Below are positions 11,635 to 58,062 of a stretch of DNA of 64,000 nucleotides, piece by piece. The stretch lies in assembly GCA_963971425.1 (NCBI GenBank), contig OZ020517.1:24810462-24874461 (forward strand), given 5' to 3'. Below the pieces are notes generated by a model. It was given only the letters and a program-made list of their open reading frames with translations. It searched no databases and was not told where the DNA came from. The number at the start of each line of letters is the position of its first letter. Position 1 is the stretch's first letter. Source of the stretch: Bryoerythrophyllum caledonicum (taxonomy: Eukaryota; Streptophyta; Bryopsida; Pottiales; Pottiaceae). Made by a program: the position numbers and the translations under genes.

Positions 11635-11655
11635 TTTGGTGCTTCCACTGAGAGA
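11635..11655 (+). other. Probable primer-binding region of the Ty3 element
   Basis: Immediately after the 5' LTR the sequence reads TTTGGTGCTTCCACTGAGAG, starting with the TGG expected opposite the CCA end of a tRNA primer. I did not identify which tRNA it would pair with. Confidence 0.5.
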
Positions 11656-11668
11656 GTTTTGAGGCGAC

Positions 11669-14131: not shown

Positions 14132-14145
14132 AGGGCACACGTGGG

Positions 14146-17529: not shown

Positions 17530-17730
17530 GTACCAGTGGCTGGAAAACGCATCAAAGTCTTTCGAAGGAGTGACAGGTTTCATCTTGAAGACTTAGAGGA
17601 CATTCTCGATCCACAACAATTTGATGACACTGATCAACCTGAAGATGAAGATGAAGATTTAGAAGATGCAGTTCGGGACAACCAAGATAGTGAGGATGAC
17701 TAAGCTTGGCACATACCAGAGGATGTGCAG

Positions 17731-17746
17731 GTTTGGAGAGGGTGAA
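17731..17746 (+). other. Polypurine tract of the Ty3 element
   Basis: The purine-rich GTTTGGAGAGGGTGAA abuts the first base (TG) of the 3' LTR, the position expected for the plus-strand primer. Confidence 0.7.
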
Positions 17747-19637
17747 TGTCCTGATGGAAATTCTTCCATCATGTACATACAAGTATTAGTCTTTATATGT
17801 GTGGATTTTAATAAGTAAGGAGTTGGGATAAAAAGGTTTGGTCGTGGTGAGAACCACGGTTTGAGGATTTGGGCAAGTGTTAGCATGTAGGTGCTGCACC
17901 GCTCTTGTCACTGCTCAGGGGGGTAGGTAGCGGGTTGACTGGTATTTTTCCTGCCTCACTAGCGAGCCAAGCCGTGGGCCGCTCAACCACTCGACGGGCT
18001 CGATCGGGTTCGAACCCGGACTGGCGGCGGCCACTGACCACGACATTTCCAGCCAACCAAGTCCACGACTTGGCGATCAGGTTGTGCGAATCAACACCTT
18101 TATACGTCCGTTCCATCAGCTAACTTTCGATAAGTTTTTATTTATTTATTTTTTAGTTATTTTTTTTATTTTACTTATCTTGTTGGTTGGAAGGTCTAAA
18201 TTTTTAGTCTTCCAATAAATAAAAGACTAGGGGATTTATGTGGTTGAAAGTGGAAAGGATAAGAAAGTAGCAAAGTACCTTGTGGGGTACTTTGGATAGG
18301 GTGACATGGGCTGGAGTGCCCACGTCCACTTGAGGTGGAAAAGTTGAAAAAGATATTCCTTAGTGTGTGTGTGTGTGTGTGCGGGTGAGAGAGGAAGGGT
18401 TTGGAGCAGAACTTTGACTGTGTGTAACTCGTTGAGCTTGAATGCTATGGAATTGAAAATTTGTGATCTTGTTCCTTGTTTCAAGAGCTTTCCATACTCG
18501 TTTTAAAATTTGAATTCGGAGTTGTAGAGAAAAAGTTATTGAGGTTTTAATTCTGTGAAAACCCGAGGCCATCCATTGAGGGGCAGAGGTTTCGAGGAGC
18601 CACAACTTTTTCTGTAGTTCTCAATTTGATTTGAGATTTTGAGGGACTGTGCATCTCTATCTTAGCTTTATAGAAAGATATTACAATTGAAATTTGGAGT
18701 TGTGAGCAAGAAGTTATAGAGATTTGAATGAATAGGGGTAGGCAGAACTTTGATTGTCCATAACTTTTGGACAGTAGTTTGGAATTGTTTGAGAATTGGA
18801 AGGTGCGTAAACCATGGTCATAGCTCTTCAAAAAGTTAATACAATTTAGATTTGGAGTTTTGAAGAAGAAGTTATGAGCGATTGAATATCTGGAGGGGCA
18901 GAACTTTGAACTCGTATATCTTTCGGACAGTAGTTTAGATTGACTTGAAATTTGGAGGAGTGTTAGTTGTCTGAATTAGCTTTCCAGAGAGCTATTACAC
19001 TTAGTATTTGAAGTTTTGAGTCATCGGTGTCACTTGTTTGAAGGTTACAGCCTTGGTGAAACTTTTCCATTGTGTTTTTGAACACTTCTTTTGAGTTTCT
19101 TAGTGTTTTTGAACACTTGAAGACTTTGGAGTTGAAAGATGGAAGAATTGAAGACTTGAGGATTGAAGAGAAGAGAAGATGGGGACAAGTGTGTTGTGGC
19201 TTGTGGTCCGATTTCTTTTTTTGTGATTCCAAGCCAGTTTTGGAGGCTAGTTGTATTTCAATTCTGTTCTTGTAAACTTTGTTGCGGCGAAGTGGGGTTA
19301 ATTGCCCACACGGTCGTGTTTATGTCGTTCCCACCGGTGAGGCACGTTTGCTGGTCACCGTGGGTTTGAATTTTAGGAGCCAATCTTTCGGACGGTTTCA
19401 GCTTGTGGTCTGGCCGTCCCGTTTTACCCGTCCGAGGCCGTGGTTTCTTATCACCCACCTTTACCCTTAACCTTTTAGAGCCACCACAGGATAGGCCGAC
19501 GGGGAGGAGTTTGAAGACTGAAGACTGAAGACTGAAGACCGAAGACCACAAGATTTGACAGAACTCCGTAGCAGACTATACGAAGTCGCAGCCAGATACC
19601 TCGCGTATTCTCAAAGCGCTCCCCTCTCTACACGACA
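17747..19637 (+). repeat. 3' LTR of the Ty3/Gypsy element
   Basis: It is the same 1891-bp sequence as the 5' LTR at 9744-11634, with the same internal palindrome (18005-18018), TG run and degenerate units. It ends ACACGACA and is followed by CCGGAG. No difference between the two LTRs was found by reading. Confidence 0.93.
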
Positions 19638-21950
19638 CCGGAGTTTGTGACAAGTTAATAGGGAGATTGGTGGAAGTACAGGCATTTTGAGGATTTTGTC
19701 TACCCGGGACAACATGGCTCTCTGGCGAGTCGGGTGGATTTCCCATTCTTCAAGGAGTGGGACTCGAAGGTCTATGAGAGAAAAAGAAGCCTCCCGGTAA
19801 CTTCTACCGGGAAGGAACCGGTAGACCTCCCTTCCTCAACTCCGGAGTCTTTGGTGGAGTCTTCTGTGGCTATACTAATCGAGCTTAAAGAGACTCCACA
19901 TATATCTATACACTAGGGTGAGAGTAGTGATGTCGATGGGGCCCCATTGTGCACCCGGTCACTACCACTTGAATGGTTTCTCCGGCTACTTATTTTTGTT
20001 AGGAAAAGGTTCACCGGTCCCGGGACCGCCGAACCGGGAGTCTTCCAGTTTACCGGTCTACCGGTAATCCGCCGGTGACTAGGCTACCATTGATTTTAGG
20101 ATCTAGATGCCGTTTTGTCTTTTAGTGGAGCTACTTTTGGAGGGTAGCTATTGACTTTAGTGCACCTCCTAGATGCCGTTTTGTCCTTTTGCGGTCTAGT
20201 TTTGGAGTGCAGCTATTGACTTTAGTGCACTCTTTAGATGCCATTTCCACCTTTTGGGGATCTAATTTTGGAGGGTAGCTAGTGGCCTTTGTGTACTTAA
20301 GGACCTTGGGCGCTTGTGTTATGTACTCTTCTCTTTGTTGATCTCCTCGTGTCTTGCTTTCATTGCTTGTGTCTAGAGTCTTTGTTGAGCTTGTGCGAGT
20401 AGACCGAGAGAGTTGAGTCCTCCTAGTGTGTCTTTGCTAGGTGTGCAAGGTTGTGACTTGTTGTGTGTTAAGTGATTTAGTGTGAGTAGAAACATCCCGA
20501 GGGACTAGGATATCCGGGTTAGATAGGTAGAGTGAGGTCCGGGACTTATGCTCTAGACTTTTTACCGGTGGGACCGGGAAGAGTTGCTTACCGGATGGGA
20601 TCTGGGAAGCCCACGGCTATTTATGATAGCTTCCCTTAAGTGGGAAGTGTTCGGATTGGTGGGGAGTAGGGGTGACATCCCCTTTCTCGCGGTACACCGG
20701 GAGACATCCCGGCTAAGCCTAAGTCTGGAGAATATCGGGATTATTACCCTTGTAGTGGATGAGTTCCGACGATCCCAATGGAAGGTTGTTTTGCTTATAT
20801 GATTTGCTTAGTACTAACTTGTTGTGAGTCTTGTATCTTCTTGCTTTGATTCATTGGATGTGGTTGTAGTTGGAACCCGGGCTTGCGTGACCGGTTTACC
20901 AGGACAAGTTCCCGGTAGATTGTGAAGACCGGTGAACCGGTTGCGACCTTTTTAACTCTTTCAAGGTGTAGGGTTAGATTGTGGATATTGTAGCCTCTGG
21001 ACTGCGAGAACGGAGGGCAGTGACTTTCCGAGCACTGTAAAAACTTACCGGAAATGTACTTTGACGCTGAACAGAGTTTAACTGAAACACATGTGGTTAC
21101 TTGTTACCCGTTACTAAGGTACCGGGGAAGCCATCCTTCGGGATGTGCCGAGGTATTATGTGTGGATTGTTGTTAAGATTTAAAGAATTTGATGCACGAT
21201 AAAAATCCCTAGAAACGATCTGGTAAGGTGGGCTTGCTTAAGGTTAATTTCGGTTAATTCTGAGAATAACAAACCACTAGACTACGACATCATCGGTATT
21301 AACATAGAGAGGTTAGAGCATAAGATTAGGACTCCCATTGAGCGTGTAGATCAGCTGCAACAAGTACTTTGAAGTTTCTGGTGACTGATACCGCATATCG
21401 ACAAAGTATAGAAAGAACGTACTTGAGCCAAATGTCGTTAGTTCGTGGACCAAATTTATACACGCTGATGAAGTGTGAGGTTCAAAATGAGAAATGATGA
21501 AGCCCTAGAGACTCAACTTTGGCAGTTCTTGTTCAAAGGTTTTAAGGGCCGGAGCCAGAATGGTCTTGAAAGATCCGAAATGGAACAAGAAGTATTCTAC
21601 CGAAACTTGGAAAACGACTTAGCTTGCAATCAATCCTAATATGCAACATTGGTTGCAGGGTTAGAGATTGCCAAAGATAAAAAGACACATCACCTTTAGG
21701 TGAAAAGAGATTCAAAATTGGTTTGAAACCAAGTTTCAGGGAACTGGGAGGTGCGTGTAGATAACCTACGACCTTATCGCGAACAAGTTGGTAAGCTTAA
21801 ATTCAATTTCAAAACTTCTGAGATTTGGCACATTTTGTTTCAAATCAACAAAAAGAGTGACAAAGTTGCAAAAAACGATTGAAGCACTTCTATTGACAGT
21901 TAGCGGAGATTTCTTCACAGTTAGGAGAGATCTCTTCACATTTAGCGAAG
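19638..21950. other. Older repeat DNA continuing from 9743, probable leader or LTR of a decayed Ty3 element
   Basis: No gene seen. The stretch is studded with ACCGGT/CCGGTA words like those before 9744, so the young element split one older repeat. It runs into the decayed gag relic that begins near 21960, in the same orientation. The simplest reading is that it is the 5' LTR and leader of that fossil. I could not find the matching 3' LTR, so this stays an inference. Confidence 0.4.
20104..20299 (+). repeat. Three tandem units of about 65-66 bp
   Basis: Units begin TAGATGCCGTTTTG at 20104, 20170 and 20235. Each contains TTTTGGAGGGTAGCTA and TTGACTTTAGTGCAC or close variants. The first two are most alike and the third is more diverged. 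Confidence 0.8.
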
Positions 21951-26990: not shown

Positions 26991-27329
26991 TTGTTTTCGA
27001 GCGTTTCCCATGTATCGTCCAGTTCAGAATTTGATAAGGCAAGTAATTTGTGCGTCAGTGAGGGTGGAGTTATTCCAGAAGCTTGTTGAGAGTCTTGTAT
27101 CAATGTCATTATTATTGAGCCAATTTTCTATGTTGGAAAATTGTGTTGCTATGATTTCTAGGTTATGAATTCTATCATATTTTAGTAAGTGTTTCTCTAT
27201 AAATCTTATTGGTCCTTTGTCTGGTGAATTTGTCATGTCAGACCATTGATCTTGGTGATAATAGTAGGGGGTAGGGTGGGCGTATTCGTGTGGTTTGGAG
27301 GCATGTTTGTGAGGTTTATTGGTGCCCGC

Positions 27330-27800
27330 TTTGGCTAATTTATCTACATGTTCATTGCCTGATATATGGGAGTGGGCTTTAACTTTGAGTAGTGTAATGG
27401 GATGTGTTCTTTTAAGTAGGAGGTGAATTATTGAAGTTAAGAGAGTGCAGTCGAGGTGGTTATTATGCGATGTTGGGTGTGTAATATGGGTATTAAGAAG
27501 ATAAAGGATATTTAGACAATCTGTGAAGATATATGTTGGTTCATTTGGGAATTGTTTGAGAATCATTTTCAGAGTTTTATAAAGAGCCATCATCCGAGCT
27601 CGTAGAATATTTTGTAGGCCATGTAATCATTTGGAGATATTTAGTTCCTTTAAGCTGTTATAAATGCCATATCCGGCGGTTTCACTTTTCCAGATTTGAG
27701 GACTAATTTCCATAGGTTCCATGAAGGAACCATTTGTATAGTAGCAGTATTCAGGGTTGAATTTCATAGGAGGACGTGTGTTGTAATGTAGGAGAGGAGG
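27330..27800 (-). pseudogene. LINE RNase H domain, decayed
   Basis: CYYTNGSF (usually TDGS; the first aspartate is asparagine) and SETAGYGIY lie at 27751-27670. After a break come TYIFTDCLN (second aspartate) and LLKVKAHSHISGNEHVDKLAKAG (histidine and last aspartate region), at about 27545-27325. This is the ribonuclease H of LINEs, which removes RNA from the new hybrid. The position downstream of the RT fits R1/I/Tad-type and plant/algal LINEs. Confidence 0.8.
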
Positions 27801-30149
27801 TGGAGAAAGGGTATTACTACAGTGGGAGGTAGGATATGGAACGGCGGACAAATGTTTGCTATGGTTGACTTTGAGTTGTGTTGGGGCTGATGGTTTGGGG
27901 TTAGTGTAGATGTAGTCAATGCCTAGGGTTGGTGCTATGGTATGAATTGTATTTAGTTGTTCTACATTACTTATATTATTGTTTTGGTGATGTATGCATA
28001 AGATTTGTAAGTTAGATGGTTTAGTATTATGTTTATGAGATGGGCTATTGAAACTAGGCTTGGTGAATATAATGGTATCGGCATCAAAGAATGTAATGAT
28101 GTGTGTGTCAAGAAATGGTCCTGTAAATGGTGTGGGGTTTGTGTACCAAATTGTGTTTGGGGCAATTATGAAGGTTATGTTGTTGGGTTGTTGTTGTGCA
28201 ACTAATTTGGCCCTATGTATGGCTTGTTTAATATCCGCATTTGTGTGGGGATGTGCAAGTCCTATACCCTGCCATTTGGAATCAAATGCTTTCCCAAGTG
28301 AGCCAAATATTTTGTCCCTATCAAAAGGTGAAAAAAACTTCTCTAGTATTGTGGGACACGTGAATGGTGATGAGAAGTAGGAGTGAATTATATCAAATAA
28401 ATATGCGAGGGAGTGAAGGATTTCGGTTGGTAGAGTGTATTGTACCGATTTAAGGGGAGGTTTATTGGAGATTTACGATTTATATGGTTGGTATAACCAT
28501 ATTATTTCGGTTTCAAAAGATTGAATACGTGGAGTGATGTCAAGAACATTGTGGTTGGATTGGTGGTATTGTTTCCATAACCATTCTAATCTTGTAGTGC
28601 TTATAGTGGTGAGGTGATGTCCATTATGTTCATAGAGGTGGGCTTTGTCATTTTGGACTATTATGGTGGGTGTTGAGATATTAATGTCAGAATCAAGGTT
28701 ACATTCTATGATAGAAACTGAGAGGAGTGAGATGTTCGTAGGTGGGTGGACATAACGGGTATCACTAGTTTGTATTTGAGGGTGGTGGGCGGCTACTATA
28801 TTGGCATAATGGTTGAACTCTTGTTGTTGAAAATAGTTAATAAAGAGGAAGTTGTTGTGGTTGATAATGTTAGTGTTATTCCATGGGAGAAGATGGCGTT
28901 GTGGTTGCCATTTCATATATTGTGTGTTACTAATTATCCATTGACATAGAAAGACTGTGTCATTTATTATTATATGATTTATATTGGTGTATTTCCAAGT
29001 ACGGTGGTTTATTGTATTACAAATGGGATATATTGTGGGATTTTTGAGTATGTGTGAGGGAGGACGTGTGAAGTTAATGGCATTATGTGTCATTGGGGGG
29101 TCAAGAGGTATTGTAATTTGAATGGTAGTAATATTTTGTATAATAATGTATGTGGATTTTAGTGTACGCAGTGGATAATGTGTAGTACATGTTTTGGGAC
29201 GGTACATGTTGGGTGACAAAATAATTGTGTAGCAATGTGAAGCGCTGATTTAATTAATTTTGTAGAAGGGGTATAAAATGTTTTGAAATCATCATGACTC
29301 ATGAAATGAGTACCATTAGGGAGAGTAATATGCTGAAGTGTTGTTATGTTGTATGTATGAAGTTTTGTAACAGTTTAGTTGATAATGCATTATTAAGGTT
29401 GGATAGTTATTCTGCTTCGGTGAGCCAAGTTTATTCTAGTGGTGATGGTTTTAGTAGAAATTGTTCAAGAGTGCTGCGTAGGTGAAGGCCAGCATAAGTC
29501 TTTAGTAAAAATATAGTACGGGTGATGGGGGAACGTATGCAATCCAATTTTTTAAGGCGGCTTAGGAGTTGAGATCCTCCATATTTAGTGAGGATGAATT
29601 TTAGGAGACCGTTATATATAATTCCGATATTTCCTATGTCCTTAAGTGCTTTGAGTAATTGGTCTCTTATACATCAAAAGTATGCATTTTTGAGTGACAA
29701 GGCATTCATTCCATAAAAGTTTATTGGGAGTTGGGTTATTATGTTTGACATGCATTTGGAGAGACCACAAATGGTTTTATGTAGCGCGATAATTTTCTTA
29801 TCTAATTTTTTAATGGCAGGCATGGAATATGGTACAGAGTAAAAGCTATATGCTATGCGTGCTCTTATTACGGTATCTGCCATGTGGATTTTATGTTTCA
29901 TTGTACATGAGCATATTATAAGATCATTGCATTGTTTTATCAAGTTAGTGGTTGTGGCGTGTATTTGTATCTTTCATTTAAAAGAAGCTACAAGTTGAAT
30001 TCCAAGGTAGGGATATGATTCGTTTCGGTGTAAAGTAGGTATAGGTTGTCCATGGAAGTTAATATTTGTTGCTTAGAGATGGGCTTTGAATTTGGTTGGA
30101 TTCATTTTTGATTTGTTAGGGCTATTTGTTAGTGCACATTTTAGAAACT

Positions 30150-37779: not shown

Positions 37780-37782
37780 CTA

Positions 37783-37818
37783 CACTATAAAAAAACCCTG
37801 TTTTTTCTGATGTCTAAA
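37783..37818 (+). repeat. Left terminal inverted repeat of the CACTA element
   Basis: It starts CACTATAAAAAAACCCTG and ends ATGTCTAAA. It matches the reversed right end at 35 of 36 positions; the ninth base differs (A here, G there). The last part is itself a GATGTCT motif. Confidence 0.95.
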
Positions 37819-38490
37819 TCTGACGCAGAGACATCAAAAAAAATGTCTTGTTAGACAGGAAGACATCCTAGACACGAGGATGTCTAATCGGACATCCAAA
37901 ATTATCTAAAGACATCCTCATTTTCAGGGTGTCTTGAGGTAACTTTGGGAGGTAAAACGTGTGCCACGTAGGTGACACATCAGCGCCATGTGGACGGGCA
38001 ATGCCACATGGCAATGAATTTCATCATGATGTGGACTTTTCGGTGGTCCCGTAGAATCTGATGTGGCGGCGCCAAAATCCGACGTGGACCCGGGAAAATC
38101 CGACGTGGCACACAGGAAATCCGACGTGGCACCCGGGATAATCTGACGTGGACCCGGGAAAATGATGTGGCATGCCACGTCAGCAAAGTTTTCGGGGGTT
38201 TTAGGGTCAAATGATGTTTCTGTTAGACATCATGTAAGACATCTTTGTGTCTTGCTTGATGTCTCCAGTGCCTAGAACGATGTCAAGATTGATGTCTCCG
38301 TTATATTTGTGATGTTTACACGGATGTCTGTTGTGACATCTCGTGGGACATCGAAGTAAACGTTTTCTGTTTTGGTGATGTTTGCGAGGATGTGACGATT
38401 AATGTCTTTTGGGCATATTAAAGGACATCTGGGATGACATTTGTAGATGTTTATATAGACATCAGAACCGTAAACCACAGACGTCTTACA
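37806..38490. repeat. Left subterminal motif region of the CACTA element
   Basis: AGACATC and its reverse GATGTCT, with near variants, recur many times in both orientations at 37806-37935 and 38210-38490. A different 21-bp array lies between them. Subterminal repeats of this type are the binding sites of the TNPA-type protein in En/Spm. Confidence 0.8.
38057..38175 (+). repeat. 21-bp tandem repeat with GACGTGG core
   Basis: Units TCCGACGTGGACCCGGGAAAA and variants start at 38057, 38078, 38099, 38120, 38142 and (partial) 38163. GACGTGGC/CCACGTC is an ACGT-core motif of the kind bound by plant bZIP factors. The array is distinct from the AGACATC motif and lies only at the left end. It could be a promoter element or a second protein-binding array. 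Confidence 0.75.
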
Positions 38491-39178
38491 TAACATCAGC
38501 ATGTGCTCTGCTCACATAGCACAAAACTAGCATGTTCAGTAATACACCAGTCAACAACTGCGAGATACTACGCACCCACAACCTCAAGCCCCTCTACTAT
38601 CATCCCTTGCTGTCGATACCCCCCTACGGTCGTGCGCATGACCGCCGCTGCACATGTTCAATAAGCCAACAACGAATGCACTTAAAAAAGGGTTTCCAAA
38701 GGCGAAGAATTTTGATTTAATTTCATTTACTTGCACTACCTACCTACACATGGTTGACTTCCTAACATCAAGAAATTGATAACCCTACTTCTTGTACTAT
38801 ACGAACGGTCAGCATAGTAGATTACAAGGTGAATCATGCCATAAGATGTCCACACAAACGTCAAAGTAGACATCTTCGACAGGTTTTACTGGATGTCTAT
38901 GAAGACATCTTCTGGATGTCATGTTCCACTCACCTACGTGCACGCCTCTGCCGTCATTTTCTCTTCGCGGCCTCTGATCTTGTTTCGCTGCCTCTCTGGA
39001 ATTGCGAAAAAACAACAGCTCACTTACTCTGCGTATGCAATTTCATTCTATACTACAAAGCAGGGCTTATTTCTTCTATCTTCATGTGTTTTCTATGCTT
39101 TCCTTACCACCATACGGGTCCATTTCAGAAAAAAATGTGCATACATGCAAGTAACCAAGTCCAAACATAACATCATAG

Positions 39179-41704
39179 TCATTTCTTCTGTACCTTATCA
39201 ACCACCTTCTTAGGTTTTGACTGGCTTCCTTGCTTCTCTTCATGTGCCTTCTTCGGTTGAGATTGTCCCGTTGCCTTTGGTGTGACAGACTTTCCCGGTT
39301 TTGACAATCCTGCAGGCTTGGGCATCTTCACCGGAGCCTTTGTTTCGGTACCTGCCTTCGCATTGCACCTTACAAAATATCCCAAGGACTCATCTTGTTT
39401 TTTGACTGCCTCCTGATTCTAACATATTTCAAACATGAAATATTATGCACAAATAAGCAAAATGTGTGACATGAACATGTAGCTACCATAAAACACTGAA
39501 AACTATGTGCACTGGCTTCCCACCATGACATTCAGACACATGCTTAAAACATAACAGTGTTTGCAAAGATGTCTGCTGGATGTCTCTACTGACGCAAGGA
39601 TGTCTCCAAAGACGTCTGTGCGTCCACCAGATGTCGCTGCAAAAGGCATTCCGAACATGGTGACGTGCAGAGTCCCAAACATGGTCACTGCATGTCTAAT
39701 CTAAGTTTACCTTTGCAATCTCCTCTGTTTCTACCGTCTCTGCTGCAAGCACCGGTGTAATGGCCTCCTCAACCTCCTCTACAAGTTCAGCCACCGCACT
39801 CGTGCCTACCACAGTGTCTCCTTCTTCTGATCCCCCTCCTTCTGCAACCTCCATGGACGTGCCTTCTTTCTTGTCCGTCGCAGCTCCCATGTTGGCATCC
39901 TGCCCAATCATGCGCTCAGACACGCCCGATGTGCCATGGTTTGGAGATGCTGGCCGCGTCTTGTCCATAGTGGTTGTTGGTGTAGGAGTAACCTGCAATA
40001 ACGAAACGCGCTGCAGGTTAGCCCATTCGACATGTTTTTCGACATCCTCTTAGACATCCCTTAAGACATCTTTGTGGACATCTTCGTAGACATCTTATCA
40101 TAAACTGATCATTTAAGGAGATTCTATAAGTGTAGAAACTGTAGAATTTGTGTGGATATAATTTTGAAGATAAGAAGGAGAAGTATTCCAAAGTAACCTG
40201 CAATAACACGGGTGTTGTAGGTACTGGCAGCTCCATGTGAGGTTGCGGGGTCGAGGAAGTCTGGGAGTCCAAAAGCTGGCGGATCATCATTTCTAAGCGC
40301 TGATGAGAGTCATCAATCTTGGCCTCCAAGCGCGTGCTGGAGGCATAAATCCTCCCCTCCAAACGCTCGTTTGATGCCTCCATTTTTTGCTCGAGCTCTT
40401 GTAGCTTGTTTTCGACTTCCTGCACATCGTCATCGTTGTCATCGATGTCCCTATCCTCCTGCATTTCATTGTACTGCGCCTCCATCTCCTCGTTAATCTC
40501 TGATTCGTACGGTGAGCGGTGAAGCCGGCAACACTGCAGTAAAGTATTCACAGAATTGGAGGCACAGATTTTAACAAAGACAACAAAGATAACATTTGCA
40601 CAGACGTCTCAGGATGTCCCCAACAACTTCGAAGATGCTTACCAGCTTCACTACCGCCGCCTCCCTGAGCGTTGCGGGCCTTGGTCGCTTGCTGCCCTTC
40701 CCCTTCGAGACATATGCCATTCTCTCAGACTGCACCTTGGCCTCTGAGGTGCTCCTTCTCTTCACGAGCTTGTTCCATTGCTGATCTGTCACCTCTGGTG
40801 GTTTCCGATGTCCTCTATCGATCAGCTGGTTCAGTGCATAGCGTCGGTTCGTTAACGCCTTGTTTACCTTCGTAGCGATCCATGCTGAGTCCACTTCGTC
40901 GTCAACGCCGTCCGCCCTCACGTCCCACCCTACAAAACATATTTCAATCGACGCTGTGAGACATCCCTGCAGACATCTTCGTAGACATCCTGCCGGACAG
41001 CCCTGAAGACATCCTAATAGACATCCTCTTAGACAGAAAACCGTCATCCCCTCCAACAGAAGCACAATTCTCTTACCTCCTGCCAAGCGATTGAAGAATC
41101 TCTCCCTCATCGCCTGAGTCTGCTCTTTGAAGTTGTAGTTTGGATCTAACTCCTTTGAGATCAAGCGCAAATCTTCCTCGTATGTTTTCTTCAAGTTCCC
41201 ATTAGGGAAGCCCTTCTCGTCCACGGTCAAGACTTTCTTCACCGCTTCCCTCTTCAACTGCCGTGCTGATCCACGCTGCAGAGGTGTTGCCTCTTCAGCG
41301 ATGTCATCGTCCTCGATTTCCTCATCCTCTGTGTCGTTTGCCTCCTCCTCATATTCTGGGTCTTCAAACCCCCGACTGTACAACAAGAAACCTTGGCTGA
41401 TAAAACAATACAACATAAAACCACAAAGTAATCACATGTTTTCAATCTTTTGGTGCACTCACCGGAAATCCTGTTGCAGTTCAAGGTCTTTCATCCGCTT
41501 TGTCCGGGTCTGTGCCTCAGTTGCCACGGACCATTTCTGCTTGTTGCTGGGTCCTGCCTGCACGTCTTCGCGATTCTTTGTCCGCAACTCTCTAGTGTGG
41601 CTGTCTTCTCTGCGTGGCGATGGCGGCCGCTTCTTCTCGCCCTTCCTCGTCATCATGACGCGCCTGGCTGGCCACTCAACAAACGCCTCGTACTTCGCAG
41701 CCAT
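39179..41704 (-). CDS. CACTA TNPA-like protein (plant transposase, Ptta/En/Spm, Transposase_24 type)
   Basis: Six exons read from splice sites and frame: 41704-41463, 41375-41077, 40929-40643, 40533-40198, 39992-39711 and 39418-39179, giving 1686 nt and 561 residues with no internal stop. The N-terminus starts MAAKYEAFVEWPARR. Exon 2 has an acidic run (EEEANDTEDEEIEDDD) and KKTYEEDLRLISKELDPNYNF. Exon 3 has the part most like Transposase_24: DQQWNKLVKRRSTSEAKVQ then MAYVSKGKGSKRPR. Exon 4 is a long coiled coil (VENKLQELEQKMEASNERLE). The last exon is a lysine-rich tail. In En/Spm such a protein binds subterminal repeats and helps the TNP2 transposase. Four of five introns carry AGACATC motifs (one has only one or two). 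The intron 4 donor reads GTTACT and its ends share a 16-bp direct repeat. Confidence 0.75.
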
Positions 41705-44250
41705 GCCACAGACATGAAAACACACTTTTAGTGAACAGAAGCACAAAATTAGACATCTTACTAGACATCCAGTCAGACATCTTCGCGGACAACGTCTCAT
41801 ACTTCGAAGTAAACATGCAGCACAATCACGGTATTCACAATGCGGATCAAACCACATCATTCAGAAGATCATGAACATGAGCACAAGCACATACACCACC
41901 TCGTCGTACTACTGCTACAACTGCTGTTCGGGAGTCATGAAATGGACAAACAGACGTCCTGCAGCACACCAACCGTACGAAACCGAACTTTTCCCTCACC
42001 AAATTTCACAGCCACGAAATCACGAATGAAGAAGCTGAAAATCAATTGCAGAACAGATGTGGAGGTAAGGAGAAGAACCACAAATTGACGGAAGCAGACA
42101 ATTCCAAAACCAGAAACAAAAACGTTCGACGGGGATCGGAGCTTCACATCTTCAAGAAGGGAGAGAGCGGGCTCATCAGCGAGGATCGAGCTGCAGAAGC
42201 GGAGCGGTAGAGCGCTCGGAGGAGGGGAGGTGACCTCGCAGGAGACGTTTGCACAATGCAGAGGTGCGAGACGATGCAGGAAAGGCGGCAGCCTTAAAGG
42301 CTCGGTCCGCGGTCACCCATCACCGACCTCCGGACTTATCACCGTGCCCCTCGCCCTATCACCGTGCGATTTCAGAAACCCTCTCCAGCGCTGGTTGATC
42401 GGCGCAGCGCTGTTGAAAATTTTGTCTCCATGCCCCGATTCCAACTTCCTCCCCTTTTGCAGGCATCAATCTGCTCGTGCGACCTCAATCCCAAGAGCAA
42501 AGTGGAGGTCCACATCGCATGTGGAGGAAGTGACGAAATTTGAGGTGGAGCTTAGGGTTCCAGTTGCTACATACCTTCTGATCCATCGTTTTCCCAATAC
42601 TTCGTACGGAGATTGGTGTAGGAAGAGGTAATTGCGGTCGCCGATTTGCTTCCATGGCTTCCTTGAATCGCGCGCTCCGCCGCACTTCTGTTCCGGGATT
42701 TTGACATTGCTCTTTCATTGTTGTTGTAGGCGGTGTGACTCTTGCAAGGGTATCGATAAAGTTATTGAAGACGTCGAGAGCTGCGTTTGTAACCACGGAC
42801 GCTCGCAACTTCTCTGGTACGGTGTCTCCACATCCACCATGTCTATAACGCACATGAAATCCTCTAGTTCCCTCCATGTTTTCAGAATGCTATGGTATGC
42901 ACTAAGGTAGGAATATTGAGGACCTTGGTTGCATGAAAAGTAGGAGTCGTAGCTTATCACAGTTGCCTTAGCTGTTTGACAGTATGCGCAGCCGATGCTA
43001 AGTAGGTTGGACACGTGGATTAGGGTTGCTTATAATTTATTCCTACTGTCATTTTGACGTCTAGACATCTCGTTAGACATCTACTTAGACATCTCGTTAG
43101 ACATCTACGTAGACATCCCATGAGACATCTGCAGGTGAAGAAGTTATTTCATACTTTACGTTGGCAGAAGTTAAGCATCATGGGAAGTATTCAGAACATT
43201 CTTTCAGCTGACATAGAACAACCAAGTTTGGAGTTTGGAAATCAATAGGAATGTATTTTCTTTCATTGTATGAAGAATTACTATTTGAACATAAGGAAAA
43301 TTGAAGAGACTAGAAGCTTGCGATGTTTTTTCGCACTCCATGCACATTGATGTTATGAAATGCACTGTACAGTGAAGTAAATTGGAAATTAAAATCACAT
43401 TATCTATGTATAAAATTTTGTTCATGCCTATAGTGTACAAGTGGATAATAATTCTATATGAGGACGTTACTTTGCGCAATTCGTATTTTGTAGAAGACTT
43501 ACTTCCAAGGTACAAACCCAATGTATTCGATTGCTATATTAACGTCTGCATTTTGAGTACAGTACTTCATTTACTTCATACTATCGTGTAAGAAAGTTTC
43601 GATCCACATATTCGATATTCATGATGTGAATTTGTGCATATACTTCTAGACGCCGTCATTTCCATTCTCCATGTGTAAGTGCTGAAGGACAATGAAATCT
43701 GTTCAAGGTTCGTTCTTTGAGGACGTCTACTGTGATGTCATCATGGATGTTCTCATAGACATCTTTAATGATCAAGACACAGTCTTACAATTGCATGTTC
43801 ACGTTCTATGTATGGTTATGTGAAGATTGTCTTTTCTGTATTGCACTAAGTACTCTTAAGATGGTTATTTTTTATTATCAGCAATGTATGCATGCACATG
43901 TACACGTACGATCAATGCAGTGGATGTATACTACCATCACCTATGGCAGAACACCTATAATCATCCATCTATAATGATGTGCATGGCTGTAGAGAACAGG
44001 GATAATACGTTGTGGTCTCTGACGTAGATATACCAACCACGTACGATGTCTTAGGAGACATCATTACGGATGCTATCATAGACGTCTCTGCGTTTAAATG
44101 GACATCCTCGTACACATTCTGCAGTAAATGATGCCAAATTTGAACAATGCGCAGTCGTGTACAAGTCATTTCTTCCGTGTTCCTTACGATCAGTATGATT
44201 TCTAACATGGTATAATATATTTTTCTATACTTCGCAGCGAAGTTGCGGCA
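41705..44250. promoter_or_regulatory. Head-to-head intergenic region between the two CACTA genes
   Basis: About 2.5 kb separates the two divergent start codons, so promoters of both genes should lie here. 42130-42560 is GC-rich. AGACATC motifs sit at 41750-41795, 43060-43131 (six units in 12-bp steps), 43722-43765 and 44045-44110. A minus-strand ORF at 42485-42877 (130 codons, with TEVRRSARFKEAMEANRRPQ) is not recognised and could be an upstream exon. No TATA box is claimed. Confidence 0.5.
43060..43131. repeat. 12-bp periodic AGACATC array
   Basis: TAGACATCTCGT, TAGACATCTACT, TAGACATCTCGT, TAGACATCTACG, TAGACATCCCA and GAGACATCTGCAG follow head to tail, at 12-bp steps except for one step of 11-13. 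The fixed core is AGACATC with a variable 5-base spacer. It is the cleanest of the arrays in this element. Confidence 0.85.
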
Positions 44251-47200
44251 ATGAGTACACAGCGGTGCCGCCATGGCGCAATGATTCGAATTGATGCTGA
44301 TGGGCGGACAATGCGTCACATCCCGCTTGCGGACCTTATCCTCCAAACAGAGCTACGAGTGGCAACGACGCAAAACATATCATCATTTTACTGCCCTTGC
44401 CAAACCTGCCATGGGGGTCGACGCCAGAGAATCGCCGTCATCCGAGAGCACCTCGCAGCCATTGACAGAGACCCATTTTTGACTAAGTCCATCATCGGGG
44501 GTGACCCGCCTCATGGGTATCCACCGGAGGATATATGGGTGGAGGATGTTGCATACGATGACGACGTTGTACATGATGGTGGCACAGCTGACGCTGATGA
44601 TGTCCCCGACGATGTTGTTCACGATGTCCCTAGAAGGGATGATGTCAACGCAGACGCCATACTACTCGATGAGTTTCACGACGTCCAGCGCCAGGTTATG
44701 GATGCTTTGGATCGTGGTGATGCACTACACAGGGATGCAGGAGGCGAACCCAATGTGGTAGACAATGATGAGTTCGATAGCGACACAGTTGATAAACTGC
44801 AGAACTTGTATGCGGAAGCCACGACACCAGTGTATCCAGGAGCAAAAACCAGCGTTGTCTCTGCTACAATCGTTCTGATGAACATGTGTGTTGTGTTTGG
44901 GGTCAGCAACACTTTCAGAACCGAATTGTTCAGGTACTTGGCACAGGATTTACTACTGAAGGACAACAAGCTGCCCAACACTCATTATGCCGCCGCAAAG
45001 ACAATTCGGAGATTGGGGTTGGACTACAACAACATCCATGCTTGTCCAGATGGCTGTGTATTGTATGAGAATGATCATGCAGAGTTGGTGACATGCCCAC
45101 AGTGTTCGAAGTCTAGATGGTTGGAGGGCACAACTTCCATCCCAGCAAAGGTGATAAGACACTTCCCTCTCATTCCGCGGCTTCAACGAATGTGGAGATC
45201 GCCAGAGATTGCAAGCATGTTGACCGGTTACAAAAAACATGTTAGTGACGATGGAATTATGCGATCTGTAGTTGACAGTCCCGCGTGGAAGCACATCAAC
45301 ACGGACGCTGCGTTTGACATCTTCGGACGTGAGGACCGAAACATGCGACTTGCTTTAGCACTTGACAGTGTAAATCCCTTCAAGTTGAGCAACACAAACT
45401 GGTCGACGTGGCCAATGCTGGTATTGATTTATAACTTGGAGCCGTGGTTTGTTACGAAGAAGTTCTTCATATCATTGTGCATATTGATTTCGGGGAAGTG
45501 GTCGCCCACGGCGACAAACATTGATGTATACCTGCGCCCATTGTTGAACGAGCTACAGCAACTTTGGCGAGGTGTACCAGCACAGGATTTCAGCCAACCC
45601 GTGGGGTCTCGACGCTTCAACCTACGCGGGTTGCTCATGTGGACTATTTCGGATTTCCCGGCGTACGGCCTGATCTCTGGTCTATCATGTAAGGGGTATA
45701 AAGGTTGTCCTTGCTGTGGCCCACAAACAGATGCTCGTATGGCGAAGACTGGGGATCTGCGCCCTGACCGTACGGCAAGAGGCTCGAAGATAGTGTATGG
45801 GGGAATACGTCGATATCTCGGTCGTCAGCATCCATATCGGAGGTACACTAGGTTCAATGGCCACCGTGAGACTCGAACGGCGCCACCAACCGTCTCAGGG
45901 TTAGACGTTATCCGGTACGCTGCATGGCGGCAATCATACTTGGATCTTGGTGGGCGGGAAGGGGCTCCCGGTGACCCTGTTCACAGCACGGGAGTCAAGC
46001 GTCTCAGTGCATTCTTCGAGCTACCGTACTGGCAGGTAAATAAGTCGTTCATCTTCTGTTGTAACAGTTGTCGTTCGCACTTTACGGGCATATAATCGTC
46101 ACGGTACTCCGCACGGATGTCTTCTGAGACTTAACAGATGTCTTCGTAGACGTCTTCGTAGACATCAATTACAACAGCTAGACGTGGACGACAGTGAACC
46201 GCACAATCACGGCATATTGAGCACGAGGAATATGGATCTAATCACATGAATGGTTATTATGTAACAGCATCTGAAGGTTCGACACATCTTGGATGTCATG
46301 CACTGTGAAAAAAATCTATGCGAGAACATTCTGAAGACGTTGTTTGGAATGAACGACAGCCCTGGAAGTCGCCAAGATCTGCAGGACTTGAACATACGTG
46401 AGGAGATTTGGTTGCAGCCCCCACGTTGTCGAGGTCATGAGTACTACATGCCGCAGGCCCCATACATTCTGAAGCTAGAGGAGAAACAACAGTTCGTTCA
46501 TATAGTTTCAAGTATGCGAACTCCAACAAAGTACGTGGGGGCAATTCACAAGCGGTTGCAGGACGGGAAACTACAATATATGAAGACGCACGACTACCAT
46601 GTCCTTATGCAACAGGTACGAAGTTGAATTGGAAATGAGTTCTGAAAAAACTAAAGTACATAGAAGAGTTGAGGTGCTAAAAAGAACTGAATATAGTAGG
46701 AACCCGCATCACTTTGAGACATCATTTCAAACGTCCGCATGTCTAGAAGCATGTCGAGAAGGACATCCTTATGTCCATGCAGACACGGTTGATGTTTTTG
46801 TACACCTCTTTTGAGGTAGATGGAACTGGCAATCCGTTCTTACAAGCACGCATAACTCAATGTCAGAGGATCAGTAGTTTCTTACTTGCACATGATGATT
46901 GTATGGGGGGTTGCAGATACTTGCGGTGGCCATTCGCAACGTCTTTGGCGAAGAGGTGCGGGTTGCGATCATCAAAATGTGCAGGGTTTTCCAGCGCATA
47001 TGCGAGAAGGAGGTACGAGAAGACTCCCGCGATAGTCTCATGCACGATGTGGTAATGGCAACATGCGTGTTGGAGAAGGAATTCCCACCGACGTTCTTAA
47101 ACGTGATGGCGCATCTTCCTGTACATCTTGTGGAACAACTCTTCATATGTGGACCGGTCCACTGTAGATGGATGTATCCAATCGAGAGATACATGAAGAC

Positions 47201-48638
47201 GCTCAAAGATTACGTAAGGACGTACGCACATCCTGAAGGGAGCATAGCAGAAGGGTACCGTCTCGACGAAACACTTGGATTCTGTACAGAGTACATGAAA
47301 CGCCATAGAGCAACAAATTTCCGAGTATGGGACGCAAACAAAGATGCTACCATGAATGATGAGATCTTGGGGCGCAATGAAACAACAAAGCGCCGAATGT
47401 CTGATGAGGTACGGGGCTACGCACATGCATTCGTCATCGACAACGCAGCGTGCTTGGAACCTTTGCGAGAGTGAGTTCCTGTACCAGTACTTGGGCATGT
47501 CAGGCCGTCCCTATGGTTGGCACCTGTAGAAATGGGCCTTGGTAACATGAATGATCGAATCGAAGTCTGATAGACGTGGATGTCAAGGAAGATGTCTAGT
47601 AGGACATCCCTTCTAACATTCATGAGTCCTTAGAAATGTCTTGCAAACGTCAATGTAGATGTAGTAGGCGTTGTTAGCACGGACGCTAGGATGTCTATAC
47701 AGACATCTTCGAGGACATTTCAGCAGTTGACACATGTGTTGTGTGTGTTAAGCATGGAATTGAATAGTCTAATAACAGAAGTGGGAGTGGTGCACAGGGA
47801 ATACATCATTGCGAAGGGACGCCGATGGAAAGAGCGAGAAGCATTTCGAGTACAGTCAAGACGTCATCGATCCTCTAGACCTGTGACATACCCCCCCGAG
47901 CTGAGGGATCTGCCATGCTTTGCAGATTGGCTAAAGGCACGAGTGCTGCAAGCAGAAGCGGCCGGTGATCGTCTTGACGAGGACGTCGTACAATATTCCT
48001 GACCTCCGGAGCGGTTTGCAACCTCTCATCGGCATATGAATGCATTCGGGATGCATTTGCGGGTGCGGACGTCGGAGGCGGGCCTTGTTACTCGAGACTC
48101 ATGTGTAGTGGCCACTTATACACAACAGTTGCGTTGGGGGATTCGCAATGGGAGGCCCATTGAGCATACCGCAGAGCATGTGGGATATATCCAGGAGATA
48201 GTGGAGCTGGATTACCGTAATCACTGCACCACGGTTTTGCTATGCGAATGGGTAAGAGCCTCACCGGACGTGCGAGTGCCGAGTATTGAGCGTGACAAGT
48301 ACGGATTCAGCATGGCAAACTTCAACCACATGGACAATAGAGTGCATCCGGATTCATTTGCATTCCCCTTGCACTGTCAACAAGTTTTTTTCTCCGATGA
48401 CCCGACAAGACGCGGATGGAAGATCATCTACCGAACAGACGTCCGCGGTCGGCGTACAACATTACATCATCGGCAACCTGTGGCGAATGGAATCGCAATT
48501 GGTGACGACGCGAACTTCCAAGGCTTACAACCGCAGATCTTGGAGATAGAGCCTATTCAGAGACCGGCGCCGACTGGAGGGTCCTATGTTACAGCCACAA
48601 CAAATTCAGACAGTGATGGTGAAATGCAGGATGAGTAG
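44251..48638 (+). CDS. CACTA TNP2-family transposase (TNPD-like), one in-frame TGA
   Basis: Four exons: 44251-46035, 46268-46615, 46917-47470 and 47753-48638, all with GT-AG introns and continuous frame, about 1190 codons. The N-terminus has a transposase-associated Cys/His segment (FYCPCQTCHGGRRQR ... GYP). The TNP2 core spans about residues 200-640: CPDGCVLYEND, CPQCSKSRW, FPLIPRLQRMW, DSVNPFKLSNTNWSTWPMLV, NIDVYLRPLLNELQQLW, LMWTISDFPAYG, then HILDVMHCEKNLCENIL. A DUF4218-like part follows (HLPVHLVEQLF, RWMYPIERYMKTLKDYVR, GSIAEGY) and a DUF4216-like C-terminus (ERDKYGFSMANFNHM; HCQQVFFSDDP). A TGA at 48000-48002 interrupts exon 4; the same frame is otherwise open to 48638. It may be a recent lesion or a sequencing error. 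All three introns carry AGACATC motifs. Confidence 0.88.
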
Positions 48639-48839
48639 TAACAGAAGAAGTTGGTACTGCCGCTTTGGGGTAAAGGACGTATAGTAGGATGTCGTGCAGG
48701 ACATTTTTACGGACATCCCAGTGGATGTCTACGGTGAGGTTTATGCGTTACTGTAGTCATAGTAAGCCGGATGTCCACAGAGACATCCGCCTAGATGTAG
48801 TATGACTTGTCAAGTCGTCCGACGTGGAGTTTTTCTTGC

Positions 48840-49270
48840 CAACAACGAAAGCGCTGTAAATTACCTTTTTCATGTATGTCCATGTGTATTTTGAGGATTA
48901 AATATCAATGAAATTACTTATACTTTGAAAATCTATTTTTTGTCACCAATAATATTTTATTGATATTTAATTATTTATATAATATTATTTAATTATTTTA
49001 ATAATTTTATATTAATAAAGAATAATATTTTTATTTGAATACATTATTTTAATATCATAATTTACTTAAATATATTAAAAAATTACTTATTATGTTTTTA
49101 CTAAAATATAAAATTATATTTTTATATTATTCAAAAACTGGACCAATGACAAATCAGTGAGAATATTCTGAATTTAATATTTCCAATATTGCCATGTTAC
49201 AAAATAAAAAATTTAATAGGAAAAAAATAAACACTTTTGAAAAGTGTGATGTCTTTTTTTTTCACTCTTG
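48840..49270. other. AT-rich island near the right end of the CACTA element
   Basis: 48930-49130 is almost pure A and T, unlike the rest of the element. It has no open frame. It follows the transposase gene and precedes the right motif cluster. It may be a matrix-attachment-like or easily melted region, or a small AT-rich insertion. Confidence 0.5.
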
Positions 49271-49384
49271 AAAACCGCTGCCATTAAGCTACTTTTAGAA
49301 CAGTAGAAATGCTTTTTACCTCGCATACCAGTAACTTTTACACGTTTTGACCTCGTTGGACCAAAATCCCTTGCCAGCGTGGCA

Positions 49385-49600
49385 ATTTGATGTCATCGGA
49401 GATGTTTCGTAAGACATCTAAAAAACTCTGACGTCTCGACGAACATCTGGCAGACATCCCCGTCTCCATGCCTCGCCAATTCCAACTGATCTTATTAGAC
49501 ATCCAAGACATCGGGATGTCCTCTAAGACATCATCTAAGACACGAAGACATCCAAAAATCTTCAAGATGTCTAGTTTAGACATCAGAAAAAACAGGGTTT
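49385..49600. repeat. Right subterminal motif region of the CACTA element
   Basis: AGACATC/GATGTCT words recur at about 49399, 49413, 49452, 49497, 49515, 49526, 49547, 49565 and 49578, in both orientations. Together with the left region this gives both ends the same binding motif. Confidence 0.8.
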
Positions 49601-49610
49601 TCTTATAGTG
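49575..49610 (-). repeat. Right terminal inverted repeat of the CACTA element
   Basis: Read on the minus strand it starts CACTATAAGAAAACCCTG. It is followed on the plus strand by the target duplication CTA (49611-49613). Confidence 0.95.
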
Positions 49611-49613
49611 CTA

Positions 49614-53152: not shown

Positions 53153-55275
53153 GCGTTTACACCTTGGAACCAGTTTACATAGTTAAAAATTATCCAAATT
53201 TACCTTTCGTTTAGTGGGGCCACCATCGATCATTGGGGCTCCTAGCGGAGGCTCATCCGCACACATGTGCATCTGCGTAGTATGTGCTGGCTGAACTGGT
53301 TGACATGCTACTGAACTCAAACAAATAAACGACGCCCAAATCAACTACGAGCAGAAACTGCGATCCACCAACCAAGAAACAACAACAACTGACTAAAAGT
53401 AAAAACAACCACCCAAAAACCCACGGTGAGATGAACGGGACCACGGTGATGGAGGCGCGGTCGAGGGGCGCAAAGTGAAGGGAGCGGCAACGAGACCTAC
53501 GTCACGAGAGCTAGGCAGGCGACTGCAGCTGCGTTGGGCAGGGAAGGGAGGAGGCCAGGGGGGAACAAGGCAAAGCAGCAGTGGCTATGGCGATCATGCT
53601 CCATGGCCGTGGCCTCGCCGTCGCACTTGCATAGCAGCACCAGCGTCAGGCCTCGCGCCACGCAGCGCCGCCCCCGCTGCTGCGTTCCTAACTCACCCGC
53701 TGGCCCTTGACTTGTGCGCTCTCTCTGTGCTCCGCTGCACGTCTTAGGTCCCGCTGTCGTTAATTTGTGTCCTCGGGCGGATGGTTTTGGGTGGCCGCGG
53801 AGGTCGCAGAGGGCGGGTGTCCCGAGGGTACTAGGCCAGCGGGGGCGGAGGGTTGGGGTTTGTTGGGAGGGCGGGAGGGATTGGGAGAGGGTCATGCGCG
53901 GGGTGGAAGGGGTGGTGTCTCTTGGAAGCGTTTCCCTTGAGGCGGTGGAAGAAGAGTTGGTTGGTGGGATCTCCCCGAGGCGTGTGGGCGCATTGGGGGC
54001 CGTCCGGGGCCGGAGGAGGGGATCTGGAGCGCGAGCGCATGGCATTCGCGGCATGACCTGGCGGCGAGGGAGGCGGGGTGATTTGGAGCGTGGCGCTCGT
54101 ATGATGCGGCGGTCCGAGGGTTAGCTTTGGCGGGTGGCTGGAAATGTAAGTCGTTCTGGGCTCTTGGGCGGATGCCGGTACGTATGGGTGGTTGTCGCAT
54201 TCTTCCAGCTTGCTTTTATTTCGCGTCCATCTAGGGTGGTGTCAATGTTGCCGAAGTCAGGGGTAGTCGTGCGCAGGTTCCAGGACATGGGTCTGGTCCT
54301 GGCCCTGGTGGTGGCAGTAGTCGGAGACAGGAATGCGGGTCGATTGAGGCGCACTCATGTGGGTAGGACTTTGCGCACTCGGCAGTGTTCGCTTCGTCTC
54401 CTGTGAGGCATGGGTTGCTTGTGTGATGGGCAGGAGTATGTGCGCGACATTTCGTGGTCGATGAGTGGATGGAGTGCGGGACTCGGGCATTCGGTCGAGT
54501 CGTTGTAGGGTGCAGGATGGTGAGGGCTCATAATTGTGTGCGGCCGGAAATGGGGTTACTTGATGCGATCGGCAGATTGAAGCGTAGCTTTGAGATTCAT
54601 GCGTTTTGTCCCGTGCTTGATATGCCGAGACGATGCGAATGAGGTGTGTGCGGTAGTGTGGTAAAGAGTCGTCGCGTCGCAGTGGGAGTGATTGAATGCG
54701 TCCGTGATTTGTGTTTGTGCCGTACACCATCGAAGCAGCGGAGAGCATATCCTCGGAGGAGTGGTGCTCTGTTCCTCTGTCTCAGCGGAGCAGGAGTGGA
54801 GCTTTTGGATGCGTAATGGGATGGCTGGTTGTGTGGAGGTGGTTTGGATGGGTGTTGAAAGGAGCAGTTTGTGCGTAGCCCGTGCGTGGTTGGTCTATCA
54901 CTCTGGTATTGCTTTGGTGTAGAGCGGTTGCGGTTAGCAGGGCGTGGATGGCGACGTGGGGCTCCTCCCGTAGTGGTAGTGGGGTTTCGGGGGCCCACGA
55001 TGATGACAACTTGAGATGGTTTTGTTCGTAGTTTGACGCGGCGGCGATGTTGGATGTGGATGGGGTGATGAGTGCATGTCTGAGCGGGCGTTGGGTGTTG
55101 GACTGTGACAGTGGGCGTGGAGTTGTGAGCGGCAGTTTCGCTGTGTTGATTGGAGGGCCGGACGGATGTGGTCACACGGAGGCAGGGATGCTGGTCGGGA
55201 GATAGGTGAAGGCAGATAACGGGGGTGGAGGGAGAGAAGTGAGACGGGGCGTGGACGTTGTGTGGGTAGCGTTGT

Positions 55276-58062
<2,787 letters not shown>

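What the first reader, a model, noticed from the sequence alone, without database searches (positions are those of the whole stretch)
39179..49600. 12-bp periodic AGACATC arrays occupy the introns as well as the ends of the CACTA element
Head-to-tail AGACATC(N5) units stepping by 12 bp occur at 40040-40092, 40960-41035 and 43060-43131. Looser clusters occur at 39565-39640, 41750-41795, 46110-46170, 46705-46790, 47560-47725 and 48680-48800. Seven of the eight introns of the two genes carry the motif, while exons are nearly free of it. In maize En/Spm the TNPA protein binds a 12-bp motif confined to subterminal regions; here the motif has spread through every non-coding gap. That suggests a whole-element coating, autoregulation or splicing role, or motif self-amplification at permitted sites.
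Basis: partly seen in the sequence, partly recalled or inferred. Interest (0 to 1): 0.75.

Follow-up and report, generated by a model that had tools for sequence, protein, structure and literature searches.

The report
Transposon protein-binding sites fill its introns
A plant-type jumping gene carries the same short, evenly spaced DNA tag at its ends, between its genes and inside most of its introns, probably so that its own protein can cover it and keep it from being silenced, as a different family of jumping genes in thale cress is known to do.

Summary
AGACATC occurs 0 times in 5,226 bp of exons, 18 times in 1,688 bp of introns, 25 times in 2,368 bp of ends, 12 times in the 2,546-bp intergenic gap and 7 times in 52 kb of flanks. 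As a 6-bp core (GACATC, GATGTC or GACGTC), 86 non-coding sites form 31 pairs exactly 12 bp apart against 1.2 expected. Without the three clear arrays it is 19 against 0.9, and in introns without them 6 against 0.2, so the stated refutation fails. Inverted pairs at this step are 8 of 9 GATGTC..GACATC, in ends and introns. One clear array (43063-43130) is intergenic; one intron has no site and two are weak. I read this as one binding lattice for an element-encoded TNPA-type protein, most likely working like VANC proteins of VANDAL transposons, which bind non-coding DNA including introns and undo silencing. My searches listed no such CACTA element. The function is inferred: no relatives were available, gene B matches no Pfam family, and the CpG hint is weak.

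The parts
37783..49610 (.). Complete CACTA element, 11,828 bp
   Evidence: 36-bp terminal inverted repeat, 97%; CTA at 37780-37782 and 49611-49613
37783..37818 (+). 5' terminal inverted repeat
49575..49610 (-). 3' terminal inverted repeat
37783..39178 (.). 5' end with 22 core sites (GACATC/GATGTC/GACGTC)
48639..49610 (.). 3' end with 17 core sites
44251..48638 (+). Gene A, TNPD-type transposase; exons 44251-46035, 46277-46615, 46917-47470, 47798-48638; one in-frame TGA at 48000-48002
   Evidence: Transposase_21 E=6e-58, DUF4218 E=1e-34; DUF4216 below its cutoff (28.2 against 30.6 bits); pieces searched apart
39179..41704 (-). Gene B, 568 aa (561 aa with the other acceptor), presumed TNPA-type binding protein; coiled coil judged by eye only; exons 41463-41704, 41077-41396, 40643-40929, 40198-40533, 39711-39992, 39179-39418
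   Evidence: no Pfam match
39419..39710 (-). Intron B5: 5 core sites (four GATGTC, one GACGTC)
39993..40197 (-). Intron B4: 5 head-to-tail sites at 40041-40094; both splice junctions lie in exact 16-bp direct repeats at 39987-40002 and 40192-40207
40534..40642 (-). Intron B3: one GATGTC and one GACGTC
40930..41076 (-). Intron B2: 5 sites on the 12-bp lattice, 40960-41025
41397..41462 (-). Intron B1: no site
41752..41781 (+). Three-unit array just upstream of the gene B start codon
43063..43130 (+). Six-unit array between the two genes, 24-bp higher-order repeat
43722..44106 (.). Seven further core sites upstream of gene A
46036..46276 (+). Intron A1: 4 core sites, three of them at 12-bp steps
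46616..46916 (+). Intron A2: 2 sites 44 bp apart, off the lattice
47471..47797 (+). Intron A3: 5 sites in two lattice clusters

Best explanation
[quoted passage not shown] The unit is a 6-bp core, GACATC in either orientation or GACGTC, preferably as AGACATC, set at 12-bp steps head to tail or as the dyad GATGTCT-N4-AGACATC. At the ends the sites serve transposition, as TNPA sites do in En/Spm. In introns, leader and intergenic DNA they most likely let the same protein occupy the element along its length and keep it free of silencing methylation, the way VANC proteins act on VANDAL transposons. Shown: element boundaries, gene models by open frame and splice signals, enrichment, 12-bp lattice and shared grammar. 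Inferred: that gene B binds it, and that the outcome is anti-silencing.
For: Enrichment in ends, introns and intergenic DNA and no AGACATC in exons. The same 12-bp lattice in ends, introns and intergenic DNA. The same one-sided dyad: of 9 inverted GACATC/GATGTC pairs at 12 bp, 8 are GATGTC..GACATC (5 in ends, 2 in introns, 1 intergenic) and 1 the reverse; with up to one mismatch 7 in ends and 5 in introns (there an AGACGTCT palindrome counts on both strands). A second register at 12n+8 bp, 27 pairs against 5.7 expected, found in ends, intron B5 and intergenic DNA. Precedent: VANC21 binds a 9-bp motif in introns, intergenic and terminal non-coding DNA, arrayed in one orientation, and VANC induces loss of methylation throughout the element (PMC5735166, passages); TnpA activation of Spm correlates with demethylation (PMC10398659, passages); in soybean TgmR* hypomethylation concentrates at subterminal repeats and the 3' end of ORF2 (PMC4219821, passages). 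Weak hint: CpG observed/expected is 0.90 in the element against 0.57 over 9900-19900, which is nearly all one young LTR retrotransposon, and at codon junctions 0.85 and 0.73 against 0.56 and 0.34.
Against: One copy only: no relative was found and no genome is held, so conservation of intronic sites is untested. Gene B matches no Pfam family and its 95-aa exon 3 gave a poor helical model (pLDDT 68.6, pTM 0.30); binding is unproven. Intron B1 has no site, A2 and B3 are weak. GACGTC is also raised in exons (5 against 1.32 expected), so that variant is not specific to non-coding DNA. CpG observed/expected is also 0.84 in 49.6-56 kb and in the 56-58.4 kb gene region beside the element, so the contrast with the retrotransposon may reflect age, composition or coding rather than low methylation. 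Gene A carries an in-frame stop, so this copy may not be autonomous.
Confidence: 0.5

Rival explanations
1. Autoregulation: the element's TNPA-type protein binds sites in introns and leaders and blocks transcription or splicing of the transposase genes, a negative feedback using the suppressor activity.
For: [quoted passage not shown] Sites lie upstream of gene B (41752-41781), upstream of gene A (43722-44106) and in introns of both genes.
Against: Does not by itself call for sites in six or seven introns or 3' of gene A; a leader site would do. Not exclusive with the best explanation.
Confidence: 0.2
2. By-product: the motif arises and spreads by small duplications, gap repair or gene conversion, and survives only where coding constraint permits; intronic sites have no function of their own.
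For: Exons are at background, not depleted. The 43063 array has a 24-bp higher-order repeat. Identical spacers recur somewhat more than chance (2 pairs against 0.37, 206 of 5000). Intron B4 is bounded by 16-bp direct repeats, the only exact direct repeat of 14 bp or more within 400 bp in the element outside tandem arrays, as if a motif-laden insert had been spliced into the gene.
Against: Spacers within arrays are not significantly more alike than between arrays (610 of 5000), so most units do not look like recent local copies, yet core and spacing stay exact; scattered dyads keep the one-sided geometry, which simple tandem copying does not make.
Confidence: 0.22
3. RNA-level role: the repeats are splicing signals or structures in the pre-mRNA.
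For: Present in 7 of 8 introns.
Against: Orientation relative to transcription is mixed: B4 and B2 arrays are antisense to the gene B transcript, B5 sites are sense, gene A introns hold 5 GACATC and 5 GATGTC; the same grammar occurs in the ends; no Rfam match in the window at gathering thresholds.
Confidence: 0.04
4. The arrays are coding: 12 bp is four codons, so they are tetrapeptide repeats in unrecognised exons.
For: Intron B2 (147 nt) is open in frame and would add a Cys-Leu repeat (ORF 40571-41431).
Against: Intron B4 (205 nt) shifts the frame; the core is held at DNA level in both orientations and in both genes; GT-AG splice sites bound each of the eight introns.
Confidence: 0.04

Closest known systems
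VANDAL21 / VANC21 of Arabidopsis (PMC5735166 and PMC10398659, passages read)
   Same: A short motif concentrated in introns, intergenic and terminal non-coding DNA, often in tandem and in one orientation; mainly outside coding DNA; an element-encoded protein as reader.
   Different: VANDALs belong to another superfamily (Mutator-like, recalled); motif YAGTATTAY; no VANC domain found in gene B; demethylation not tested here.
En/Spm and related plant CACTA elements (TNPA/TNPD)
   Same: CACTA ends, 3-bp duplication, tnp2 transposase, short subterminal repeats in direct and inverted orientation; the En-1 motif is 12 bp (PMC2613891, passage).
   Different: There the repeats are described as subterminal; here the same lattice also lies in introns and the intergenic gap. 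Gene B is on the opposite strand from the transposase and has no Transposase_24 match.
Jozin CACTA elements of Chenopodium (PMC8978399, passages read)
   Same: 12-bp subterminal units, 19-23 copies per element.
   Different: Copies described at the 5' and 3' ends in the passages read; other sequence.
Soybean TgmR* (PMC4219821, passages read)
   Same: CACTA element, hypomethylated at subterminal repeats and the 3' end of ORF2 in the mutable line.
   Different: No intronic array described in the passages read.

Membership tests
CACTA (En/Spm) superfamily | Terminal inverted repeats beginning CACTA | tested here: met
   CACTATAA... / ...TTATAGTG, 36 bp, 97%
CACTA (En/Spm) superfamily | 3-bp target site duplication | tested here: met
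   CTA on both sides
CACTA (En/Spm) superfamily | tnp2-type DDE transposase (Transposase_21, DUF4218) | tested here: met
   E=6e-58 and 1e-34, above Pfam cutoffs
CACTA (En/Spm) superfamily | Subterminal repeats of 10-20 bp in direct and inverted orientation (as stated in PMC8195511, passage) | tested here: met
   22 and 17 core sites at the ends, both orientations, 12-bp step
En/Spm-type TNPA protein | Transposase_24 (PF03004) or other recognisable TNPA domain in the second gene | tested here: not met
   No Pfam match for gene B at E<=1; two sub-stretches at E<=10 gave 0 and 8 families, all below cutoff and none Transposase_24. PMC8195511 (passage) notes that tnpA is highly diverged between species, so this is weak evidence against
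En/Spm-type TNPA system | Protein binds the subterminal motif | not testable with these tools
   Needs a binding assay
En/Spm-type TNPA system | Motif confined to subterminal regions | tested here: not met
   28 core sites in introns and 19 in the intergenic gap
VANDAL / VANC | VANC domains (DUF1985, DUF287) in the second protein | tested here: not met
   No Pfam match
VANC-like mode of action | Motif arrays in introns, intergenic and terminal DNA, near absent from coding DNA | tested here: met
VANC-like mode of action | Loss of DNA methylation when the protein is expressed | not testable with these tools
   CpG observed/expected is only a weak hint

The most novel reading that the evidence does not exclude
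A CACTA lineage has independently evolved a VANC-like whole-element anti-silencing system, using its transposition sites as the address label and its introns as landing platforms. At least one intron (B4) was gained as a motif-bearing insert whose 16-bp flanking duplication supplied both splice sites, so the element makes new non-coding room for its own protein inside a gene.
Probability: 0.3. Interest if true: 0.75.

Novelty: new variant of a known kind. Interest (0 to 1): 0.5.

Why it matters
If the intronic sites are functional, two different transposon superfamilies have reached the same solution, marking their non-coding DNA for one self-encoded protein. That would tie the old TNPA activation of methylated Spm to the newer VANC anti-silencing and make the link testable by binding and methylation assays. 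Intron B4 would also be a case of an intron gained together with regulatory sites.

Tried and rejected
Relatives: two viral-contig scans and one genome-contig scan matched 8, 3 and 21 stretches by pattern, none confirmed by tblastn; those collections hold viruses and prokaryotes, so this says nothing about plants. No whole genome is held for the window.

Deamination origin: GACATC and GATGTC are each one CpG deamination from GACGTC, and GACGTC is raised in non-coding element DNA (10 against 0.13 from the flank rate, or about 1.3 from shuffles), while GATATC, the double product, is absent (0 against 1.27). GACGTC is also raised in exons (5 against 1.32). This fits decay of a palindromic ancestor, but the uniform orientation inside arrays argues for selection of an oriented site; I left it open.

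Local tandem expansion as the source of all arrays: not supported for most, by the spacer comparison (18 direct spacers, 610 of 5000); 43063-43130 is the exception. An earlier set of 14 units picked by hand gave 2.85 within against 2.65 between, untested.

Structure of gene B: only exon 3 was submitted; the model was poor, so no fold search was run. PDB sequence search with the same exon: no match at E<=1. Rfam: no match at gathering thresholds.

Literature: eight searches listed no paper whose title or abstract start describes the TNPA-type motif in introns of a CACTA element; several lists were capped (for example 15 of 312), the library is open-access only, and of eight papers I read passages found by term, not whole texts.
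Full report
What is there. Window 37783-49610 is a complete CACTA element of 11,828 bp: 36-bp terminal inverted repeats, 97% complementary, flanked by CTA on both sides. Gene A (+ strand, 44251-48638, four exons) encodes the transposase: Transposase_21 at E=6e-58 and DUF4218 at E=1e-34; DUF4216 (E=3e-6) is just under its Pfam cutoff. It has one in-frame TGA at 48000-48002. Gene B has no Pfam match. By eye residues about 320-372 look like a coiled coil (no predictor was run), and the segment around residues 239-275 recalled to me the TNPA/Transposase_24 pattern; that is a lead only, since the Pfam test was negative.

Is the motif enriched where claimed? Yes. AGACATC on both strands: 0 in ten exons (5,226 bp), 18 in eight introns (1,688 bp), 25 in the two ends (2,368 bp), 12 in the intergenic gap (2,546 bp), 7 in 52,166 bp of flanks where about 6.1 are expected. 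Exons are at background rather than purged: GACATC/GATGTC occurs 8 times there against 4.25 expected, GACGTC 5 times against 1.32, and sites with up to one mismatch are 4.8 per kb in exons, 3.3 in flanks and 17.1 in non-coding element DNA. No pair of the 25 exon sites is 12 bp apart. Of eight introns, seven hold GACATC/GATGTC and six hold AGACATC; B1 has none, B3 one (P=0.07), A2 two that are off the lattice.

Is the 12-bp step real outside the three arrays? Yes. With the core GACATC, GATGTC or GACGTC (86 sites in 6,602 bp of non-coding element DNA, no double counting), 31 pairs lie exactly 12 bp apart against 1.19 under random placement within each segment. Without the three clear arrays it is 19 against 0.89, in introns without arrays 6 against 0.20, in ends 9 against 0.62 and in the intergenic gap without its array 4 against 0.07; each was reached in 0 of 5000 randomisations. 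With exact AGACATC alone the power is lower: introns without arrays have no direct 12-bp pair, and the ends have one. Base-identity autocorrelation, which uses no motif, ranks lag 12 first of 57 lags in introns, in introns without arrays, and in the intergenic gap without its array; it ranks fourth in the ends and fourth in exons, where the top five lags are all multiples of three.

The grammar. Direct pairs step by 12. Inverted GACATC/GATGTC pairs at the same step are 8 GATGTC..GACATC (5 in ends, 2 in introns, 1 intergenic) and 1 the reverse. With one mismatch allowed in the 7-mer, 13 such pairs are seen against 2 of the reverse arrangement, 7 in ends and 5 in introns; in that count an AGACGTCT palindrome scores on both strands. 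A second register at 12n+8 (8, 20, 32, 44, 56 bp) has 27 pairs against 5.7 expected, 0 of 3000; the residue 5 class is also mildly raised, 10 against 4.4, 41 of 3000. The 20- and 32-bp pairs lie in the ends, intron B5 and the intergenic gap. GATATC is absent (0 against 1.27). Sharing one grammar between the ends, where CACTA elements keep the sites of their TNPA-type protein (PMC2613891, passages; PMC5105172, passages), and the introns is the main reason to think one protein reads both.

The array at 43063-43130 lies between the two start codons, so two of the three clear arrays are intronic. Not every gap is filled: there is no non-coding core site from 44101 to 46116 (2,015 bp, mostly exon 1 of gene A), between 41953 and 42770, or between 48782 and 49248.

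How it most likely works. Arabidopsis VANDAL21 is a close parallel in anatomy: its VANC21 protein accumulates over introns, intergenic and terminal non-coding regions, binds a 9-bp motif there, the motifs are arrayed in one orientation at high density, tandem repeats occur in introns of the element's own genes, and VANC induces loss of methylation throughout the element (PMC5735166, passages). A later paper from that line of work points to Spm TnpA as another transposon protein whose activating effect correlates with demethylation (PMC10398659, passages). In soybean the mutable TgmR* CACTA copy is hypomethylated mainly at the subterminal repeats and the 3' end of ORF2 (PMC4219821, passages). 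I therefore take anti-silencing by lattice binding as most likely (0.5), by-product spread (0.22) and autorepression by the suppressor effect (0.2) as the serious rivals. A weak hint in favour is CpG content: observed/expected 0.90 for the element against 0.57 for 9900-19900, nearly all one LTR retrotransposon whose 1,891-bp LTRs are identical, and at codon junctions 0.85 and 0.73 for genes A and B against 0.56 and 0.34 for the retrotransposon's two ORFs. Against it, other parts of the window are nearly as high (0.84 in 49.6-56 kb and in the 56-58.4 kb gene region) while others are low (0.66 in 1-9900, 0.62 in 20-37.8 kb, 0.71 in 58.4-64 kb), so it does not prove low methylation. An RNA-level role is unlikely because orientation relative to transcription is mixed.

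How the arrays arose. The 43063 array has a 24-bp higher-order repeat, so local duplication probably made at least that one. Over 18 direct spacers, those within an array are not significantly more alike than those between arrays (2.61 against 2.27 of 6 positions, 610 of 5000 permutations), though identical spacers recur somewhat more than chance (2 pairs against 0.37, 206 of 5000); most units are thus old or arose otherwise. Intron B4 stands out: donor and acceptor junctions lie in exact 16-bp direct repeats (39987-40002 and 40192-40207). Outside tandem arrays this is the only exact direct repeat of 14 bp or more within 400 bp in the element; no other intron shares more than four aligned bases across its junctions. 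It looks like an inserted motif-bearing stretch removed by splicing. For CACTA transposase genes (gene A's kind, not gene B's) intron loss is reported to have prevailed and intron gain to be exceptional (PMC4158355, passages).

Novelty. The eight literature searches (some lists capped) showed no title or abstract start describing TNPA-type arrays in introns of a CACTA element; the library is open access only. The mode itself is known from VANDALs. I call it a new variant of a known kind. The limits are plain: one copy, no relatives reachable, host not identified, gene models without transcripts, and no binding or methylation data.

Noticed in passing
1-2179 and 53421-55599: 99.9% identical inverted duplication that runs off the window start, enclosing about 51 kb; a recent large inverted repeat or an assembly artefact.
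   Followed up: partly
9744-19637: Young LTR retrotransposon (reverse transcriptase, RNase H, integrase in the order of Ty3 types, recalled) with two 1,891-bp LTRs that are 100% identical.
   Followed up: partly
27027-28472 (-): LINE-like region in which an RNase H domain sits beside a stretch matching PCIF1_WW, above its Pfam cutoff; an odd partner for a retroelement.
   Followed up: no
38074-38163: GC-rich 21-bp tandem repeat (4.2 copies) between two motif blocks of the 5' end.
   Followed up: no
48000-48002: In-frame TGA in exon 4 of the transposase gene, between DUF4218 and DUF4216; this copy may not be autonomous.
   Followed up: partly
40930-41076 (-): Intron B2 is 147 nt and open in frame; if retained, the array would add a Cys-Leu tetrapeptide repeat to gene B.
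   Followed up: no
37783-49610: Second spacing register of the core sites at 12n+8 bp, 27 pairs against 5.7 expected; meaning unknown.
   Followed up: partly
56123-56557 (+): Protein kinase domain; it looks like an exon of a GSK3-like host gene (recalled likeness).
   Followed up: no
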